From Schizochytrium sp. TIO01 (taxonomy: Eukaryota > Sar > Bigyra > Thraustochytrida > Thraustochytriidae), in assembly GCA_004764695.1 (NCBI GenBank), contig SMSO01000032.1, positions 1,262,501-1,326,500 on the forward strand: DNA of 64,000 bases. Direction: 5' to 3'. The translations under genes and the position numbers were made by a program. Positions within the stretch are counted from its first letter, which is position 1, and every line of letters begins with the position of its first letter. A model generated the notes under the pieces. That model was given only the letters and a program-made list of their open reading frames with translations, had not been told where the DNA came from and did no database searches. Shown here piece by piece: positions 29,917 through 63,507 of this stretch.

Positions 29917-32900
29917 TTATTCAAGCCCAAAACCAATTGAATGCTCAAGTGCTAAGCACAAACGGTCCCGCATCTTTTCCTCTGAAGAATAATCGGGTAG
30001 CATAATGGTGTTAAAGCATGTATGGGACGTGGGCAATTGATCTGTATCTGGGCCTGCGCGTTGTACCTTAAATGACATTAGGGCAGCAAGACCACCAACA
30101 GGGGACTTTGGAGAACCGGTGGTAAACCGAAGAAATTGCTGTTTCTGATCATACGAGAATGAATTCACAATGTGCCAGAATCGTTTGACTGTTTCATGAT
30201 CCTCATCGTATCCACCTTCGTAAGACGCGATTCGATGCAGCTCGTCAAAGTCCAACTCAGGTGTTCCGCATACAGCGAGCTCAAGCTCATCTGGCTCAAA
30301 GAGGTTCAAGGATGGAATATCGTTCGGAATTACGCGATTGAAACCCTCGACAAGATCCTTCGCATTTGCGCCAATGCTGTCGACGACTAAGTATTTGACA
30401 AGGGCGTCAACATATTCATTGCGATTATCCAAAGTCACAGCAATGTCTGCACCACCTCGAACAAGCTCTACATCGCGACGAACGCCAAAGATATCAACGG
30501 ATACCTCAAAGTTCTGCATGAAGACATCCTCAAAGTCGGGCTCATCATACTCGAGCAGGGACTTCACATTTTTAGCGAGAGAAGCGTCAAGTTCCTCCAA
30601 GTTATCTAAGGTTGGCTTGCGAGGAACCTTATTTAGCAGAATACGCCAAAATAACAGAGGGAACTGTACGTCTAACAACGTCGAATTATAAATTGCCAAT
30701 CCGATGAGAGTGCCTACCAGAAGGTAAGGGCGACTTGCGTCGGCAAGATCCTCATCAAACACATTAAACCAGAGCGTGTTGGTATCACCATTGCGACGAA
30801 AAAGACCGCAATCTGGCTGGAAAAGCTGCGCTGACAAGAGTTGGAAGAACTCTTTTCGAACACCACCCGCATCAAGGCCTTGTTCGCCAACAAACTTGAC
30901 ACGCAAAGGTTTGCGAAGCTCGGTTGATTGACCGCGAGTATTCTCGATCTGAGACATTGTATCCTCCAAAAGGTGAGTACGGCGCACGTTCAGAGTGTAA
31001 AAAGGTTCACTGCTAAAAAGACGGCTAACAAGGATATTGCGCAATTGGGTAGTCTGATCCTCAACCTGCAAAATCCGTCGCTTCACGCCAGCACTTAGGA
31101 GGAAGGGATAATCAAATAAGTTAAATTCGTGGACCAAGGCATGTGTCGCTGCGTTTCGTCCCAAGTATGCTTCCTGGTGGCGCAGCTGTTGCCGAGTTGC
31201 CAGAATCTTACGCCACCTTTCGAGTGTTTTACCAAGTTCTTCATTGTCAATATCTTGCATATGCTTGGAGTAGAAGCGAGTATGATCAATACGTGACATT
31301 GAAGAGTTGTCGCGAGGGCGGCTCTGGTTGATCCGATAGAGGTAACGTAAGAGAGTGCAAACTTCCTTGCATGTATCGTCAAAACGGGTAAACATGACAG
31401 ACTTGTCAAGCAGCCCCAACAGAGGATCAACAAGGTATGCGGCAATCAGGTTCGAGTTAATGTCATATTTGATCCATGAAAGGAGAACATCACGAGAGCG
31501 CGATGGAAGCTTACGGAAGGTGGCAACCAGGAGATCGTACTCTTTTGGTGTTGCGCGCATAAATGGGGACATAAAGAGCACCAGGAAGACTCTAAGCTGG
31601 TCGGGTTCAGTCAAATGACTAGCTGCTTCGTCGAGCTGGCCAATGATTGGTGCAAGTCGCTCACGCAAGTACATCGAAGCTGTCTCAGGTCCCATTGTTG
31701 TTTGAAACGATTCAAGAAGCGCTTCCATACCAGAGAGCATGGACTCAAACTCAATACAAGAGTTCCGCTTCTCGTCAAATTTGTCTGGGCTCGATCTATG
31801 TGTTGAGGAGTATGTGCCAGTCAGGAAACTGGAGTTTAGGGTACAGAAATCAAAAAGTTCAAGGTTCACCGAGCGACGAAAGGTTCTTACGGACTTGCGG
31901 CCTTGTTTGCCAAACTTAATAAGGATGTCTTCTGCTAAAGCAGAGAGGTCACTGCCAGTGAAATCAAGAATAACTTGTTTGGGCCAACCTCGAGACATCA
32001 CTTCGCGTCGATCAAGGGTATCATCGTCAGAGGACAAAGCGAAGATACTTTCTCCACCAGCTGAAATAGACACCACATTTGCTGTTTCATCTAGTGCTCT
32101 GACAAACCCAGGAAGAATCTCAGTTTGGCCGTCGTCAGTAGGAAAGCTATCAATTTCGCTTTCTTCCTCGCCCCCGCTTGAGGATACGCGCTCATCTGTG
32201 CGACTTCCGCTACTACTTTCATCGGAGGAATTATGTCGAGACAAGTCAAAAGAGGACTCTTCATCAATGGTATCGTTTCCATGGGCAGAGAAACGAGGAA
32301 GTTTAAGATCTGAGATGCCCCCGGATGACAGCCGCGGACCCCGAATTGCGCTCTTAAAGGTACCGAAGTCGTACATTTTCTTCTCGGGAGCAGAATTGCC
32401 GGCCACATACACAGCTCCATTTTCGAAAAGCAAGACTGTCGAATGTTGAGCTGCAGCAACCTGCACTGGGATATGAGGAAAGCTAGAAAGCGCTTCAAGG
32501 CGCCGTGGAGGAGTTACATTACGATGAGTCTTCTTGGGTGACATGCCAAGTTGCCCTTGGTCCGGACGACCACAAACATAAACCCCACCTGCTACAGTGA
32601 GGAACACAGTATGCTCAGCACCGCACGCAACCTTTGCAACAGCGCGGGAGAGAACAACCCGGTCAGGTGAGGTGCAAAATGAAGGTGCGCCCTTCCGGGC
32701 AAAGCCAAGCTGGCCATGTGAGTTGCTACCCCAAGCGTACACCCGGCCTGTTGAAGAGACTGCACAAACATGGTTTCCTCCAGCTGCAATTTGTACAATA
32801 GGGTTTCCGTCCAAAGCACCGCGTACCATTTTCGGGGAAGCACGATTCTCCCCATCACCGAGACCTAAAACACCATCAAGGTTTCCACCGAAAGAGAACA

Positions 32901-34038
32901 CGCGACCTCTTTGGCTCAACAAGAGGGTCGAGCTTCCTGTGCAGGCAACCTGGATAATAATTTCATGCAATTTTTCCACAAGCCTTGGTCCAACATTGTA
33001 GATATCTCTGTCCCTTGAGTGACCAAGCTGACCAGCCTCATTATTGCCCCAGGTTATGACCCGGCCAGCCGATGTGAGTACTGCAGTGTGAGCATCACCA
33101 CACGAGGCCTGGACAATGTGCTGCTTAGAAAGAAATGAATCCGCAATGGGCATAGGATTATGCATAAAGTCTTCGGCCTGTTTGTCTACATGGAGTTGCC
33201 CCTCACTATTATCTCCAGCGCCAATAAGTTTTCCATCTGCCGTTACAGCAATTGAGTGAGATCCTGAGGCGCCTACCTGTACAATGCAGAGGCTATCAAG
33301 GATCCCCGAGCACGAGCTCACATCACGAGAGCTCGTCTCAGCGCACCTGCCACCTTCTCTAAGCAGCTGGCCGGCTGAATTGTCGCCCCATGCGAGTAAA
33401 TGGGTAGGCGCAGGGCCTCCTGGAACTGTATATACACTCTCCGCTGCATCAGCATTCTTTATTAGGCGACCATCAGCGGGATTCTGAGTAGAATCTCGAG
33501 CTTTACTGCGCCTAGTATCGAACTTCTGCGCAGCCGAGTCTCGCATGCGACGACTGATGCGTGCGACGACGCTCAGTGCCCTTTTGCTGCTCTTACGAAG
33601 TGATAGCTTTGCTTGCGGATTCGCAAGCTGAGCGCCGCCAAGGATGCTACGTCTTGAGATACGGTTTTCCTGATTAGCAAGATGCACAGCACCAGCAGAA
33701 TTTTGTGATGTTGCATAGTTCCGCGACCCAGAATTCCTAGAAACACCTTCACCATAGTCTTCATCATGGTCATTTCCAGCTCCAAAAGAGCCAACCTCGC
33801 ATCCTTCACTTTCGTCAATAAATTCTTCAGTGGAAAGCCTAGACCGACCATGGTTCATTGCCCGCACTTCATCCCTAAATCCATGACCTTCCCCGGTCTC
33901 CGATGTTGTCGTACTCTGAGTACCAGACCGCGATCTGTGACTTCCTCGCCGAAACAAGCTAAAGCTAGGCTTTCTTGAAGAAGCTGTGCTCGCCTCGCTC
34001 TCCCCACGAGCTCTTGAACCCGTGCGACTGCGAAGCAT
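29917..34038 (-). CDS. HERC-type E3 ubiquitin ligase (RCC1 repeats plus HECT)
   Basis: 1373 residues, single exon. A basic, Ser-rich N-terminal tail of about 205 residues is followed by an RCC1-like propeller (about 210-560) with repeated units such as VITWGNNEAGQLGHS and VYAWGSNSHGQLGF. Next come an acidic Ser-rich insert (about 580-640), a helical middle, and a HECT domain (about 1020-1373) with VKFVGEQGLDAGGVRKEFF. The catalytic cysteine is in SHTCFN, residue 1341, where ubiquitin is held as a thioester before transfer. The order matches small HERCs (HERC3/HERC4). Those have about 1050 residues, so this one is longer by its N-terminal tail and inserts. Substrates cannot be read from sequence. 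Confidence 0.93.
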   Translation of the reverse strand: MLRSRTGSRARGESEASTASSRKPSFSLFRRGSHRSRSGTQSTTTSETGEGHGFRDEVRAMNHGRSRLSTEEFIDESEGCEVGSFGAGNDHDEDYGEGVSRNSGSRNYATSQNSAGAVHLANQENRISRRSILGGAQLANPQAKLSLRKSSKRALSVVARISRRMRDSAAQKFDTRRSKARDSTQNPADGRLIKNADAAESVYTVPGGPAPTHLLAWGDNSAGQLLREGGRCAETSSRDVSSCSGILDSLCIVQVGASGSHSIAVTADGKLIGAGDNSEGQLHVDKQAEDFMHNPMPIADSFLSKQHIVQASCGDAHTAVLTSAGRVITWGNNEAGQLGHSRDRDIYNVGPRLVEKLHEIIIQVACTGSSTLLLSQRGRVFSFGGNLDGVLGLGDGENRASPKMVRGALDGNPIVQIAAGGNHVCAVSSTGRVYAWGSNSHGQLGFARKGAPSFCTSPDRVVLSRAVAKVACGAEHTVFLTVAGGVYVCGRPDQGQLGMSPKKTHRNVTPPRRLEALSSFPHIPVQVAAAQHSTVLLFENGAVYVAGNSAPEKKMYDFGTFKSAIRGPRLSSGGISDLKLPRFSAHGNDTIDEESSFDLSRHNSSDESSSGSRTDERVSSSGGEEESEIDSFPTDDGQTEILPGFVRALDETANVVSISAGGESIFALSSDDDTLDRREVMSRGWPKQVILDFTGSDLSALAEDILIKFGKQGRKSVRTFRRSVNLELFDFCTLNSSFLTGTYSSTHRSSPDKFDEKRNSCIEFESMLSGMEALLESFQTTMGPETASMYLRERLAPIIGQLDEAASHLTEPDQLRVFLVLFMSPFMRATPKEYDLLVATFRKLPSRSRDVLLSWIKYDINSNLIAAYLVDPLLGLLDKSVMFTRFDDTCKEVCTLLRYLYRINQSRPRDNSSMSRIDHTRFYSKHMQDIDNEELGKTLERWRKILATRQQLRHQEAYLGRNAATHALVHEFNLFDYPFLLSAGVKRRILQVEDQTTQLRNILVSRLFSSEPFYTLNVRRTHLLEDTMSQIENTRGQSTELRKPLRVKFVGEQGLDAGGVRKEFFQLLSAQLFQPDCGLFRRNGDTNTLWFNVFDEDLADASRPYLLVGTLIGLAIYNSTLLDVQFPLLFWRILLNKVPRKPTLDNLEELDASLAKNVKSLLEYDEPDFEDVFMQNFEVSVDIFGVRRDVELVRGGADIAVTLDNRNEYVDALVKYLVVDSIGANAKDLVEGFNRVIPNDIPSLNLFEPDELELAVCGTPELDFDELHRIASYEGGYDEDHETVKRFWHIVNSFSYDQKQQFLRFTTGSPKSPVGGLAALMSFKVQRAGPDTDQLPTSHTCFNTIMLPDYSSEEKMRDRLCLALEHSIGFGLE

Positions 34039-51891: not shown

Positions 51892-54800
51892 ATGTCAAGC
51901 GCTCGACGATGGGTGAGTGACCACCTGCACGATTTACTTGGGTTTAGCGAGCGTGCTGCTGAGGATTTCGTGTTGGCGTTGGGCAAGTCAGCAAAGAGCG
52001 TTGCGGACGCAGAGGTTCGCCTGCACGCATTTGACTTCCCGCAAGATTCCCGTACGTATGAATTCGCGAGGGCTCTGCTGGCAAAAGTTGGGTCGTCCAA
52101 ATCGTCGTCATCATCTTCGTCCTCTTCAAATTCGAATATAAATGCTGTTTCGGCTTCGGGCTCCGAATCATATGGACTTCTCCTCGAGGATCCTGAAGGC
52201 AATGCAGGTGCGGATAGAGATAGAGATGGGAAATCGCGGAAGCGCAAGAAGCATCATAAAGATAAAGACAACAAAAAAAGCAAAAACAAAAAGAGCGATA
52301 AATCTCGTGAAGAACGTAAGCAAGAACGCAAGAGGGCCCGTGAAGACCGTCTCCATGCACCCTCTGCAGATGGATTTGCTGAAGAAGATGTTGCCATCGT
52401 CATCCCTGGCCAAGACAATGAGGAGGATGATGTTGAAGAACAAGAAGATGTGCAAGAAGATGTTCAAGAAAACGATGGCCAAACCAGAACAAGCGATACC
52501 AACGACACAGATAATTCAACCGGGCTTCATGACGCAGATGACAAGAAGGAAACCGAGCATGAACGCAAGCTTCGCGAGTTCAAGGAGTTCGTGGGCTCAG
52601 GAGAAGATGGCAAGGCCGAAGATCAACGTATGAAAACCCGAGCCGCGGAGAAAGAACAGGAGAAACTCAAGCAAAAGCTTCAACAAAGCCAGGATGAAAG
52701 CGAGCGACTTCGTCGTGAATTCACAATAGACGAACTGCGCGATGAGTCTCGATTTGCTTATTTGAAGAAACGCGAGGAACGTGAACTGAAACTTCTTGAA
52801 GCGAGTATTCAAGACGAGGAAAACCTTTTCCAAGGTCAAGAGCTCACAGAAAAAGAGAAAAAGGATTTAGAAATGCGCAAAGAGCTAAAAAGGTTGATTG
52901 AAAGTCGTAAACAAATCGAACAAAACGCCAACAGCGAGTTTTACCAGCTTCCTGATTCCTATGAAGATTCTGAAGGCAAGATCAATGCGCAGAAAAGGGA
53001 TGCGCTGCTATCTCAGCGGTATCATGATGAGGGTAGAATGAAAACAGAAAACGATGTATGGGAAGAACAACAAACCAAGCTTGCAAGATCTCAAAATCGG
53101 TACGCCTCAACGGGGACATCAACTTCATCAACTCAAAATGGCGAGGATGCTGCCTATGAGCTTATTCGGGCTAGTGAAATTGGTTTTGTACCCACCAAAC
53201 GCATTCCAGGGTCGAAGCCATCGAATAGGCTTAGGAAAAGGCTATCTGCGTCCCCAAGGTGGTGAAGAAAGCCCAGCTGAAGGTGCAACAGATCCCAATA
53301 AAATTCAAGAGGGGGGGGATGCTGAGGAGAAGCCTAAAACGATGGCTGAGGTCAGAGCTGCACTTCCAGTCTTTCCTTATCGTGAAGAACTGTTACGTGC
53401 AATAAAAGATCATCAAATCTTGATTGTTGTCGGTGAGACCGGATCTGGTAAGACAACGCAAATCCCTCAGTACATTCATGAGGCTGGGTATTCCGCTCTA
53501 GGAAAAATTGGTTGTACTCAGCCACGTCGAGTGGCTGCTATGAGCGTAGCTGCACGTGTCGCACAAGAAATGTCTGTAAAGCTTGGTCGCGAAGTAGGGT
53601 ATTCTATCCGTTTTGAAGATTGCACATCGGACAAAACACTGATTAAATACATGACTGATGGTATGCTTCTGCGAGAGTTCATGACATCCCCTGATCTTGC
53701 GGATTACAGCGCGATGATGATCGATGAGGCGCATGAACGTGGATTGAACACTGATATTTTGTTTGGGTTAATCAAGGACATTGCTCGGTATCGTAAAGAC
53801 TTGCGCGTGATTGTGGCTAGCGCTACACTTGATGCACAAAAGTTTGCAGCTTATTTTGACAACGCTCCAATTTTTAATATCCCTGGTCGGCGTTATCCGG
53901 TTGACATTATGCACACCAAAGCTCCGGAAGCTGACTATCTTGATGCTGCGGTAGTCACTACTCTTCAGATCCACATCAGCGAACCAACTCCTGGTGATAT
54001 TCTTATTTTCCTTACTGGTCAAGAAGAAATTGAAGCTGCACGTGAGAGCCTTGTTCAACGTACGCGTGGCCTCGGTAGTCGTATCAAAGAACTTTTAATT
54101 TGTCCAATTTATGCTTCCCTTCCAAGTGAAGAGCAAGCTAAAGTATTTGTTCCAACGCCTAAAGGTGCTCGCAAGGTTGTGCTTGCAACTAACATTGCAG
54201 AAACTTCTTTGACCATTGATGGCATCTGCTATGTAATCGACACTGGATTTTGCAAGCAAACAAGTTACGATGCCAGAACTGGAATGGACTCTTTGATGGT
54301 CACACCAGTATCGCAGGCCGGTGCGCAACAACGTGCTGGTCGTGCTGGTCGTACAGCACCTGGTAAATGTTTCCGCCTTTATACCGAGTGGTCTTTTAAA
54401 CATGAATTGGAGGAAACTACTACTCCAGAGATTCAGCGAAGTAACTTAACCTCAGTGGTTCTTATGCTCAAAAGTTTAGGCATCAATGATCTCATTGGCT
54501 TTGACTTCATGGATCCGCCGCCTCCAGAAGCCCTGATACGATGCTTGCAGCAACTATATGCGCTTGGTGCATTGACTGACAAAGGAGAACTTACAAAGCT
54601 TGGACGCAGAATGGCTGAATTTCCAGCGGACCCAATGCTCTCCAAGTCACTGTTGGCTGCAGAGCATTATGGTTGCGTTGAAGAAGCCTTGACCGTATCT
54701 GCAATGCTCGATGTTAATGCATCGGTTTTCTACCGACCACCAGACAAAGCCGTTCTTGCAGATACGGCTCGTAAAACTTTTGCTCAGGGTGAAGGTGCTT

Positions 54801-55351
54801 GGGGCGACCATATGGTGCTAAAAACTGTGTATGAGCAATGGGCCGCTACAAACTATAGTGCTGCATGGTGTTATGAAAACTATGTGCAGGTTCGAAGCAT
54901 GCGCCGTGCTCGAGATGTACGTGATCAACTTGCGGAGTTGTGCGATCGCGTTGAAATGGAACGGAGCTCTAGTACTGACTCAGAGGCTCTGCGTAAGGCC
55001 ATCACTGCAGGATATTTCTTCCATACAGCTAAGTTGCAAAAGGATGGCTCCTACAAAACGGTCAAGGACCAATACAGTGTCCATGTTCACCCGTCAAGTA
55101 GCTTGCACAAACGTGATCCTCTGCCAAAATTGGTTCTTTATCATCAACTCCAACGCACAAAGCAGGAGTACATGCGTCAGATCTTAGTGATAAAGCCAGA
55201 ATGGCTTTTAGAGATTGCACCTCACTTTTACACACAACGAGATATTGACGAGATGATGCGCGCAGGCAAGCCTCGCAATAATGTAATTGCATCAGTTATT
55301 AACGCAAAGGGCGATGCCCCTGAGAAATATCAAGTAGAGAAGAGTTCTTGA
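51892..55351 (+). CDS. DHX16: DEAH-box splicing helicase DHX16/Prp2, with a frame break
   Basis: Two overlapping frames form one protein of about 1152 residues. The first (51892-53265) starts [22 protein letters not shown], like the DHX16 N-terminus, then has Lys/Glu-rich linkers. The second (open to 55351) carries the helicase: [29 protein letters not shown] (Walker A), [20 protein letters not shown] (IDEAHERG), [30 protein letters not shown] and the C-terminal OB-fold region. Prp2/DHX16 uses ATP to remodel the activated spliceosome before the first splicing step. The frames must join between about 53188 and 53265. A one-base indel at AAAA (53236-53239) or removal of a 22-base GT-AG segment (53188-53209) would both restore frame; the former is more likely. 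Confidence 0.92.
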
Positions 55352-61416: not shown

Positions 61417-63507
61417 TTACATCATTGAGCCCTTGATGATGAGACTGGTTCTTCGGCGAGGCGCAAGCTCATCATCTTCAAGCTCATCTCGAGTGGTGCT
61501 CTGGCCTGTTCCTGAATGTCCGTCAGCCTTGCTTTCGGCTGTAGCGTTGGGCACAAACGGAAGGGGCATTGACTGGTAGTTCAGTCCTTGACGGCTATCT
61601 AGGGGCTGAGGAGCACTGGCCTGTTCTTGGGGGGACATTGTATCCAGACTCTGCTCGGGAGCATAGTCAGAGCTCGAAAATTGCGAGTGCTGCTGATGTT
61701 GTTGCTGCTTAAGACGAGCAACTTGTTCTTCCTCGGCCTTAAGCTGCCGGCGAAGGTTGTCGTTCATTGACTCAAACGAGCTCTTTCGTCGCATAGAGAT
61801 CCTCCCTCCTGCTGGACTGCTGCCAGATCTAACTCCCGGGGCTGCACTGTCAGCTTGAACAGAGCGCTTAGTTGCGGCAGAGGAGGTGGTTGCCGGAGTT
61901 TGGGTGGATGGGCTTACGGGGCTTAAAGGGCTTACAGGTGAGTTTGCATAGTCGACAACACCCCCTGACGCAGGTTTGTCGTTATAACTCGGCCCTTCTA
62001 CAAAGCGACCAGCTGACTTTGAGCTGGGCTCGCCCTGAGGCTGGCTTTCAAGGTCATTCTTATAGTCAATGAAGCTGCTCATACCTTCAGCCTCGCCATC
62101 CTGGATAGGGGCCATGTGGATTCCTTGCACGTGTTGGTGAAGCCTGCGTTCCATGTCTGCGGAGTCATCGATTCCGCGCCAATGGCTTGACGCCTCACGC
62201 CAATGAGTTATTACATCATAAAGGTGACCTTCGTCGAGAATGTGGCGAATGAAACCATCCGAAAGATTGCGCTCAACTTCTTCACGCTCGACCAGAGGTC
62301 CATAGCTCGTGTCATCGAAACAGTAGCCCAAGAGAGGAAGGTAGAAGGGTTTCCGGCGGAACTGCATACGGAATTTCTGAGTATCGACACGATTTTCAAA
62401 CGCAATGGTGAGATTAAGAATGATTGCATCATAATGTGTAAGTGGGTCGCGACGTACAATCTTACTTGCGGTTTCGAGGTCAAAAGCAATCTCGCCCTCA
62501 ATCCCAGCATCGCGGAGGATGAACATAAAGAGTCGTTGAATCTCGATGCGAGGCTCAACAATGAGTACGCGGGGAGCACGAGGGCCAGCTTTGGTACGCT
62601 TGGAATTCGTTTTGCGGTTGAGGAAAGATACATTGCGCATTTTATGCGGGGCCATTGCATCAGAGCCGCGTTGGTATGGGGTAACCGCGCGAGCACTGCG
62701 AATACGCTTCACAAAAGGCTCAAGAACAACAAACCTTACATACCAAGCGAAGAAACCGAACAAGTTCTTAGCGAACAAGTCACCAACTGAGTGTCCAATC
62801 TTATCACCGTCCGGGCCCATCAAATTAAAGCACGGCGGTCCAAAGGCATAAAGAAAGATAAATAGACTCTGTGCAAAGAAAAAGTAGGTCATGACGGCAA
62901 GAACCCACTCCCAGCAGCGTTCGTGAACGATGAAATGCTTCTTTTTTTCGCGAATCATTGCCAAAAGATCAACGACAAGCCAGAAGCACACGAAATAGGA
63001 TGCAAGGTTGAAGATCCATTTAAGTGTCACGTTCTTCTGCATGGCTGCCAACACACCAAAAGCAATCATCACGATATCTTTTACCATCATAAAGGTGACA
63101 TGACCAAGCTCTAGGTCGTCAGGGGTCATAAGATTCAGTAGAATGTTAACGTTCGAGATAATCACAGGACAGGTCATCATCCAGAACAAGTAACGGCCGA
63201 TAGCTAGATCAAAAACGTCACCAGCGTGGTTTTCAATGGGAATGTAAAGGAAATCAGTTGTTCCAAAGCAAGCGAGTGAGTAAACACAAAAGGTCACAAA
63301 TTGCACATAGATAGGATGCAAATTACAGCGTCCATTGCGATACTGGAAACCATAAAAACAAATCAGTGCAGTACTGCAGGAAAACACGCATAGACTTGCG
63401 CCTGCGACTCCTTGCGACACAGTTTCATCTGTTGTTGGCTGGGTTTGTAGTACACGAATAAACTCGCGACGCCAAAGCTCATGTTCACTCATAGCCATCG
63501 CCTCCAT
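61417..63507 (-). CDS. channelrhodopsin-like protein fused to a degenerate receiver domain
   Basis: 696 residues from the ATG at 63507, single exon; the frame is open upstream but has no earlier ATG. Seven hydrophobic helices (about 30-275) carry microbial rhodopsin signatures. Helix 3 reads GRYLFWMMTCPVII; helix 7 reads GHSVGDLFAKNLFGFF, with the retinal Schiff-base lysine K247 and counterion D243. Helix 3 Cys113 and helix 4 Asp144 (VKDIVMIAFG) form the 'DC pair' of channelrhodopsins. The proton-acceptor site is Phe108, so a proton pump is unlikely. A receiver-like domain follows (about 310-440; VLIVEP, YDAIILNL, SDGFIRH) with the acidic pocket and phospho-Asp replaced (E318-P319, N365). The tail (about 470-696) has SP repeats, a short coiled coil, and two RRxS/T sites (RRKSS, RRRTS). 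I infer a light-gated ion channel, perhaps an anion channel, in the plasma or eyespot membrane. Confidence 0.9.
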   Translation of the reverse strand: MEAMAMSEHELWRREFIRVLQTQPTTDETVSQGVAGASLCVFSCSTALICFYGFQYRNGRCNLHPIYVQFVTFCVYSLACFGTTDFLYIPIENHAGDVFDLAIGRYLFWMMTCPVIISNVNILLNLMTPDDLELGHVTFMMVKDIVMIAFGVLAAMQKNVTLKWIFNLASYFVCFWLVVDLLAMIREKKKHFIVHERCWEWVLAVMTYFFFAQSLFIFLYAFGPPCFNLMGPDGDKIGHSVGDLFAKNLFGFFAWYVRFVVLEPFVKRIRSARAVTPYQRGSDAMAPHKMRNVSFLNRKTNSKRTKAGPRAPRVLIVEPRIEIQRLFMFILRDAGIEGEIAFDLETASKIVRRDPLTHYDAIILNLTIAFENRVDTQKFRMQFRRKPFYLPLLGYCFDDTSYGPLVEREEVERNLSDGFIRHILDEGHLYDVITHWREASSHWRGIDDSADMERRLHQHVQGIHMAPIQDGEAEGMSSFIDYKNDLESQPQGEPSSKSAGRFVEGPSYNDKPASGGVVDYANSPVSPLSPVSPSTQTPATTSSAATKRSVQADSAAPGVRSGSSPAGGRISMRRKSSFESMNDNLRRQLKAEEEQVARLKQQQHQQHSQFSSSDYAPEQSLDTMSPQEQASAPQPLDSRQGLNYQSMPLPFVPNATAESKADGHSGTGQSTTRDELEDDELAPRRRTSLIIKGSMM

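What the first reader, a model, noticed from the sequence alone, without database searches (positions are those of the whole stretch)
61417..63507. Channelrhodopsin-like photoreceptor fused to a receiver domain and a long tail
One frame encodes seven helices with channelrhodopsin landmarks (TCPV in helix 3, GxxVGDLxAKNxxGxxxxYxR in helix 7, Cys113/Asp144 gate pair), then a response-regulator-like domain, then about 225 disordered residues. A rhodopsin linked directly to a receiver, with no histidine kinase between, differs from algal histidine-kinase rhodopsins. I recall red-shifted anion channelrhodopsins from labyrinthulids with a similar C-terminal domain, so the class may be known, but its signalling logic is not.
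Basis: partly seen in the sequence, partly recalled or inferred. Interest (0 to 1): 0.9.

Follow-up and report, generated by a model that had tools for sequence, protein, structure and literature searches.

The report
Red-light anion channel with degenerate receiver
This is very probably a known red-light-gated anion channel of a thraustochytrid (a marine fungus-like protist), whose C-terminal half holds a receiver-like domain that has lost the residue normally phosphorylated, so it is unlikely to signal by ordinary two-component phosphotransfer.

Summary
A 696-codon frame on the MINUS strand (61417-63507) encodes seven helices (Bac_rhodopsin E 6.8e-22), a receiver-like domain and a 230-residue low-complexity tail. 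Three such rhodopsins were found in the 64 Mb genome, which also has a crtI-crtB-crtYc/d fusion as described for thraustochytrids. This one alone has all six residues that two papers tie to RubyACRs, the red-shifted anion channelrhodopsins of labyrinthuleans. It is very probably AlACR1 of Aurantiochytrium limacinum or an ortholog, a known protein. I had no AlACR1 sequence to compare.

The receiver is homologous by profile comparison (96.7%; 20 shuffled controls at most 5.3%) but degenerate: Asn at the phospho-acceptor (Asn and Ser in the paralogs), where 17 of 18 other receivers found keep Asp. The second acidic residue is Pro in all three. Yet it is as conserved between paralogs as the channel part and was found only in these three genes. 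'Receiver' should read 'pseudo-receiver', probably a phosphorylation-independent docking or gating module. Papers I could search do not describe it, but the founding RubyACR paper was not held.

The parts
61417..63507 (-). Whole coding frame, 696 codons plus stop, one open frame: RubyACR-type anion channelrhodopsin (AlACR1-like)
62704..63402 (-). Seven-helix channelrhodopsin domain, residues 36-268; F108 at the counterion position, C113/D144, D243, Schiff-base lysine K247
62575..62703 (-). Linker, residues 269-311, 10-24% identical between the three paralogs
62212..62574 (-). Degenerate receiver (pseudo-receiver), residues 312-432; E318-P319 at the acidic pair, N365 at the phospho-Asp
62110..62211 (-). 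Segment after the receiver, residues 433-466; 59% identical to the neighbouring paralog, 21% to the third
61420..62109 (-). Ser/Pro/Gln/Ala-rich tail, residues 467-696, 22-24% identical to the paralogs where aligned; a weak coiled-coil match (CCDC138_cc, below its cut-off) at residues 573-605

Best explanation
The gene encodes a RubyACR: a retinal-binding, red-absorbing, light-gated anion channel of a thraustochytrid, very probably AlACR1 of Aurantiochytrium limacinum or a close ortholog. Light isomerises retinal on K247, the seven-helix part opens to anions and shifts the membrane potential of the motile zoospore, steering or stopping swimming (channel function inferred from the family; behaviour inferred). 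The receiver-like domain cannot take a phosphoryl group in the usual way. It most likely works as a phosphorylation-independent docking or gating module common to the three channels of the cell, for example placing them in one membrane patch or coupling them to one partner. Shown here: fusion, homology, degenerate active site, conservation equal to the channel part. Inferred: anion current, colour, partner and role.
For: Rhodopsin. Three Bac_rhodopsin genes found, and three AlACRs are reported for A. limacinum (PMC12221091, passages). F108, M147 and A246 match HfACR1 F104, M143 and A242 with identical spacing (PMC12448745, passages). Y171, Q213 and I217 match the residues that PMC11473104 calls unique to RubyACRs, tried in MsACR1 as W142Y, W182Q and G186I (passage). 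This gene has 6 of these 6, L002 2 of 6, L003 0 of 6. The CrChR2 Glu90 position is Thr in all three (matched by eye through), and labyrinthulean ACRs are reported to lack this Glu (PMC8406140, passage). Retinal supply: crtI-crtB-crtYc/d fusion and two RPE65-type oxygenases. AlACR1 is reported significantly lower after settlement than in zoospores (PMC12221091, passage). Receiver: hhalign probability 96.7%, P 3.6e-10 against 16 receivers of this genome; 20 column-shuffled controls 0.1-5.3%. Degeneracy: N365, N380, S358 against Asp in 17 of 18 other receivers (found, read from the listing). Constraint: receiver identities 50, 37, 31% against 48, 34, 33% for the helices and 22, 24, 21% for the tail.
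Against: No AlACR1 sequence was at hand, so the name rests on signature residues and gene count; other thraustochytrids have crtIBY as well (PMC10016063, passages). Colour and selectivity are not measured. The MsACR1 and CrChR2 positions were matched by spacing and by eye. The receiver profile aligns only over query columns 7-99, every solved-structure match has E 0.042 or worse, and single-sequence search found none. An Asp-less receiver could still be regulated in other ways. No structure could be predicted.
Confidence: 0.8

Rival explanations
1. The receiver is a live phosphorelay target: one of the cell's histidine kinases phosphorylates it, perhaps at another residue, to tune the channel.
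For: The genome has 9 HisKA matches, one Hpt match and 18 Response_reg matches, so a phosphorelay exists in the cell.
Against: Asn, Asn and Ser stand at the phospho-acceptor and Pro at the second acidic position of all three; none of the three channel receivers reaches the Response_reg cut-off or is among the 18 matches.
Confidence: 0.08
2. The protein is a sensory rhodopsin that signals by shape change through its C-terminal domain; channel current is secondary.
For: [quoted passage not shown]
Against: RubyACRs are reported to give large photocurrents (PMC8818676, passage), and the same 2025 passage says that the seven-helix domain suffices for channel activity.
Confidence: 0.12
3. The receiver part belongs to a separate gene.
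For: None found; no transcript data were available.
Against: One open frame without a stop, and the same fusion without stops in both paralogs.
Confidence: 0.02

Closest known systems
RubyACRs (AlACR1, HfACR1): labyrinthulean red-shifted anion channelrhodopsins
   Same: Channelrhodopsin domain with Phe, Met and Ala at the three HfACR1 tuning positions and the Tyr/Gln/Ile set reported as unique to RubyACRs
   Different: No difference found, but no RubyACR sequence could be aligned here
The two paralogs L002 and L003 (probably AlACR2 and AlACR3, in unknown order)
   Same: Same architecture with pseudo-receiver and tail
   Different: 2 of 6 and 0 of 6 RubyACR residues; Phe in L002 and Val in L003 at the counterion position
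Response regulator receivers (Response_reg PF00072; CheY, Sln1)
   Same: Profile homology over about the first two thirds
   Different: No phospho-acceptor Asp, Glu-Pro at the acidic pair
Algal histidine-kinase rhodopsins (Cop5/HKR1 type)
   Same: Rhodopsin and response-regulator part in one chain (PMC7693036, passages)
   Different: No histidine kinase or cyclase match in this protein; rhodopsin part is of channel type

Membership tests
Channelrhodopsin | Seven helices with Schiff-base lysine in helix 7 | tested here: met
   Bac_rhodopsin E 6.8e-22; hydrophobic windows grouped into seven; K247
Channelrhodopsin | TCP motif in helix 3 and the Cys/Asp gate pair (pair name recalled) | tested here: met
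   T112-C113-P114 and D144, invariant in the three paralogs
Channelrhodopsin | Light-gated passive current | not testable with these tools
   Needs electrophysiology
RubyACR | Phe, Met and Ala at the positions of HfACR1 F104, M143 and A242 | tested here: met
   F108, M147, A246, spacing 39 and 99 as in HfACR1 (PMC12448745 passages)
RubyACR | Tyr, Gln, Ile at the positions of MsACR1 W142, W182, G186 | tested here: met
   Y171, Q213, I217; the passage calls these residues unique to RubyACRs (PMC11473104). Positions matched by spacing and the alignment, not with an MsACR1 sequence
RubyACR | Overall sequence identity to AlACR1 or HfACR1 | not tested
   No such sequence was at hand; the founding paper was not held
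RubyACR | Absorption near 590-610 nm and anion selectivity | not testable with these tools
   Inferred from residues only
Response regulator receiver | Homology to the receiver fold | tested here: met
   hhalign 96.7% over columns 7-99; 20 shuffled controls at most 5.3%. The last third is not covered
Response regulator receiver | Phospho-acceptor Asp and acidic pair | tested here: not met
   N365; E318-P319
Response regulator receiver | Score above Pfam's Response_reg cut-off | tested here: not met
   No hit for this protein or L003; 16 bits against 30.2 for L002
Histidine-kinase rhodopsin | Histidine kinase between rhodopsin and receiver | tested here: not met
   Pfam up to E 1 gave only Bac_rhodopsin and a weak CCDC138_cc match

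The most novel reading that the evidence does not exclude
The three anion channelrhodopsins of this cell share a pseudo-receiver that couples a light-gated channel to the cell without phosphotransfer, either by binding histidine kinases or the Hpt as a decoy, or by holding channels of different colour in one photoreceptor assembly. Unless a paper that I could not read describes it, it would be a first named module in the C-terminal half of this channel family.
Probability: 0.3. Interest if true: 0.65.

Novelty: already known. Interest (0 to 1): 0.4.

Why it matters
The gene is very probably the native form of a published optogenetic tool. What is added is the C-terminal half: a 2025 paper says the role of the channelrhodopsin C-terminal domain, up to half of the chain, remains unclear (PMC12448745, passage), and a 2021 study expressed opsin domains only (PMC8406140, methods passage). 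A conserved, Asp-less receiver in all three channels found in one genome gives a concrete part to delete, to use as bait, or to test for an effect on the current.

Tried and rejected
A viral-contig scan with the alignment of the three proteins confirmed no relative (0 of 47 pattern matches; only two short peptide patterns were used, so distant relatives could be missed). NCBIfam gave no family for any of the three proteins. A single-sequence search of solved structures with L002's receiver gave nothing up to E 1, so the receiver assignment rests on profiles. Of the 5 chains in the profile search, three are named CheY or receiver; the Sln1 chain and the 'regulatory, Fis family' chain I take for receivers from recall. 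Other weak Pfam matches, all below their cut-offs, were set aside as chance: CCDC138_cc in this protein, DUF3681, Avr2 and TFIIA in L003. The usual Lys lies outside the aligned stretch; its place near H422 is my reading by eye. Live phosphorelay and separate-gene readings were set aside for the reasons under rivals.

Literature: one search shows one paper with both RubyACR and response regulator (RubyACR only in its reference list); three papers with anion channelrhodopsin and response regulator (two seen by passages, one by listing only); none; two (listing only, of 2009 and 2019); three, two listed (one seen by passage; one by listing). Of 29 papers with the word RubyACR (28 listed) I saw passages of seven (with 42, 53, 54, 67, 68). 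None of the passages names a receiver in these channels. The 2020 founding paper and the 2023 paper were not held. No whole text was read.

Full report
Observation. The frame at 61417-63507 is on the minus strand; from the ATG at 63507 it runs 696 codons to the stop. It matches Bac_rhodopsin at E 6.8e-22 and, among solved structures, channelrhodopsins best (3ug9, E 1.9e-17). A hydrophobicity scan gave 11 windows over threshold, which I group into seven helices within residues 33-262; the last 230 residues are 80% residues of a disorder-promoting set.

Genome. The window lies in a 64.06 Mb genome of 37 contigs. Bac_rhodopsin was found in three genes (the search ignores introns, so a split gene could be missed): this one, a divergent neighbour about 2.5 kb away (L002, 45% identical over the matched part) and one on another contig (L003, 32%). 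One frame, its 5' end cut in the fetched stretch, holds phytoene desaturase, phytoene synthase and lycopene cyclase matches. This fits crtIBY, reported in A. limacinum, S. aggregatum and H. fermentalgiana, with a four-domain relative in Thecamonas (PMC10016063, passages). Two RPE65-type oxygenases are present. Three channelrhodopsins, AlACR1-3, are reported for A. limacinum; AlACR1 is significantly lower after settlement than in zoospores, the other two lower but not significantly (PMC12221091, passage).

Which channel. F108, M147 and A246 lie 39 and 99 residues apart, exactly as F104, M143 and A242 of HfACR1, whose mutation shifted the spectrum to the blue (PMC12448745, passage). Y171, Q213 and I217 correspond to the changes W142Y, W182Q and G186I that mirror residues unique to RubyACRs in MsACR1 (PMC11473104, passage). 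N167 falls at MsACR1 position 138, where the same passage reports F138N as a small red shift; it does not say that this Asn is a RubyACR residue, so I do not count it. This gene has 6 of 6, L002 2 of 6 (F124, A262) and L003 0 of 6. Only this gene is of the RubyACR kind. The CrChR2 Glu90 position is Thr in all three, in line with the report that labyrinthulean ACRs lack this Glu (PMC8406140, passage). Bacteriorhodopsin and CrChR2 numbers other than those in the cited passages are recalled, and positions were matched by eye through the alignment.

The receiver. Pfam finds no Response_reg in this protein (whole up to E 1; domain up to E 10) or in L003; L002's domain scores E 0.014, 16 bits against a cut-off of 30.2. 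A profile of the three domains lists 5 solved chains up to E 1: Sln1 (E 0.042), two CheY, a Fis-family regulator and a named receiver; none is significant alone, and that the first and fourth are receiver domains is recalled. Against a profile of 16 of the 18 receivers of the same genome the probability is 96.7% (P 3.6e-10), while 20 column-shuffled controls gave 0.1 to 5.3%. In that alignment the phospho-acceptor Asp falls on N365, with N380 and S358 in the paralogs; the second acidic residue is Pro in all three; the beta-4 Thr is Cys here and Thr in both paralogs. Of the 18 receivers found (a lower bound by the tool's note), 17 keep the Asp and one (L019) has Ser, read from the listing. The channel receiver matches only the three channel genes at E below 1e-27; a fourth match has E 0.39.

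Constraint. Pairwise identities are 50, 37 and 31% in the receiver, 48, 34 and 33% in the helices, and 22, 24 and 21% in the tail. The receiver is held as firmly as the channel although it has lost its chemistry, which points to binding or mechanical coupling and not to decay. This is identity among three paralogs only; no test of selection was run.

Working model. Red light opens an anion channel in the zoospore membrane (inferred from the family). The pseudo-receiver, common to the three channels, is the likely place where they meet a shared partner or membrane site (inferred). Classical phosphotransfer is unlikely (residue loss shown). The cell does have phosphorelay parts: 9 HisKA matches, 1 of them below the Pfam cut-off, 18 receivers and one Hpt.

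What is known. RubyACRs are published (PMC8818676, passages), and a phototaxis role of thraustochytrid channelrhodopsins has been suggested there. I found no paper describing the receiver in searches, but the founding paper was not held. [quoted passage not shown]

Noticed in passing
61417-63507 and L029:6125-8077: Two of the three channel genes stand back to back, about 2.5 kb apart, reading outwards; perhaps an inverted duplication sharing a regulatory stretch.
   Followed up: partly
62203-62790 (+): A 195-codon open frame lies antisense to the channel and receiver coding region; nothing seen that makes it a gene.
   Followed up: no
29917-34038 (-): RCC1-repeat plus HECT ubiquitin ligase, 1373 codons.
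   Followed up: no
51892-55351 (+): Two overlapping open frames, the second with DEAH-helicase-type families, the first without a Pfam family at E 1e-4; perhaps one gene with an intron.
   Followed up: no
L019 (G000:C34:2370851-2371441): Another receiver with Ser in place of the phospho-acceptor Asp, in a 2320-codon open frame.
   Followed up: no
L035 (G000:C24:326104-326328): One Hpt match found against 18 receivers and 9 HisKA matches, as if the relays pass through one carrier.
   Followed up: no
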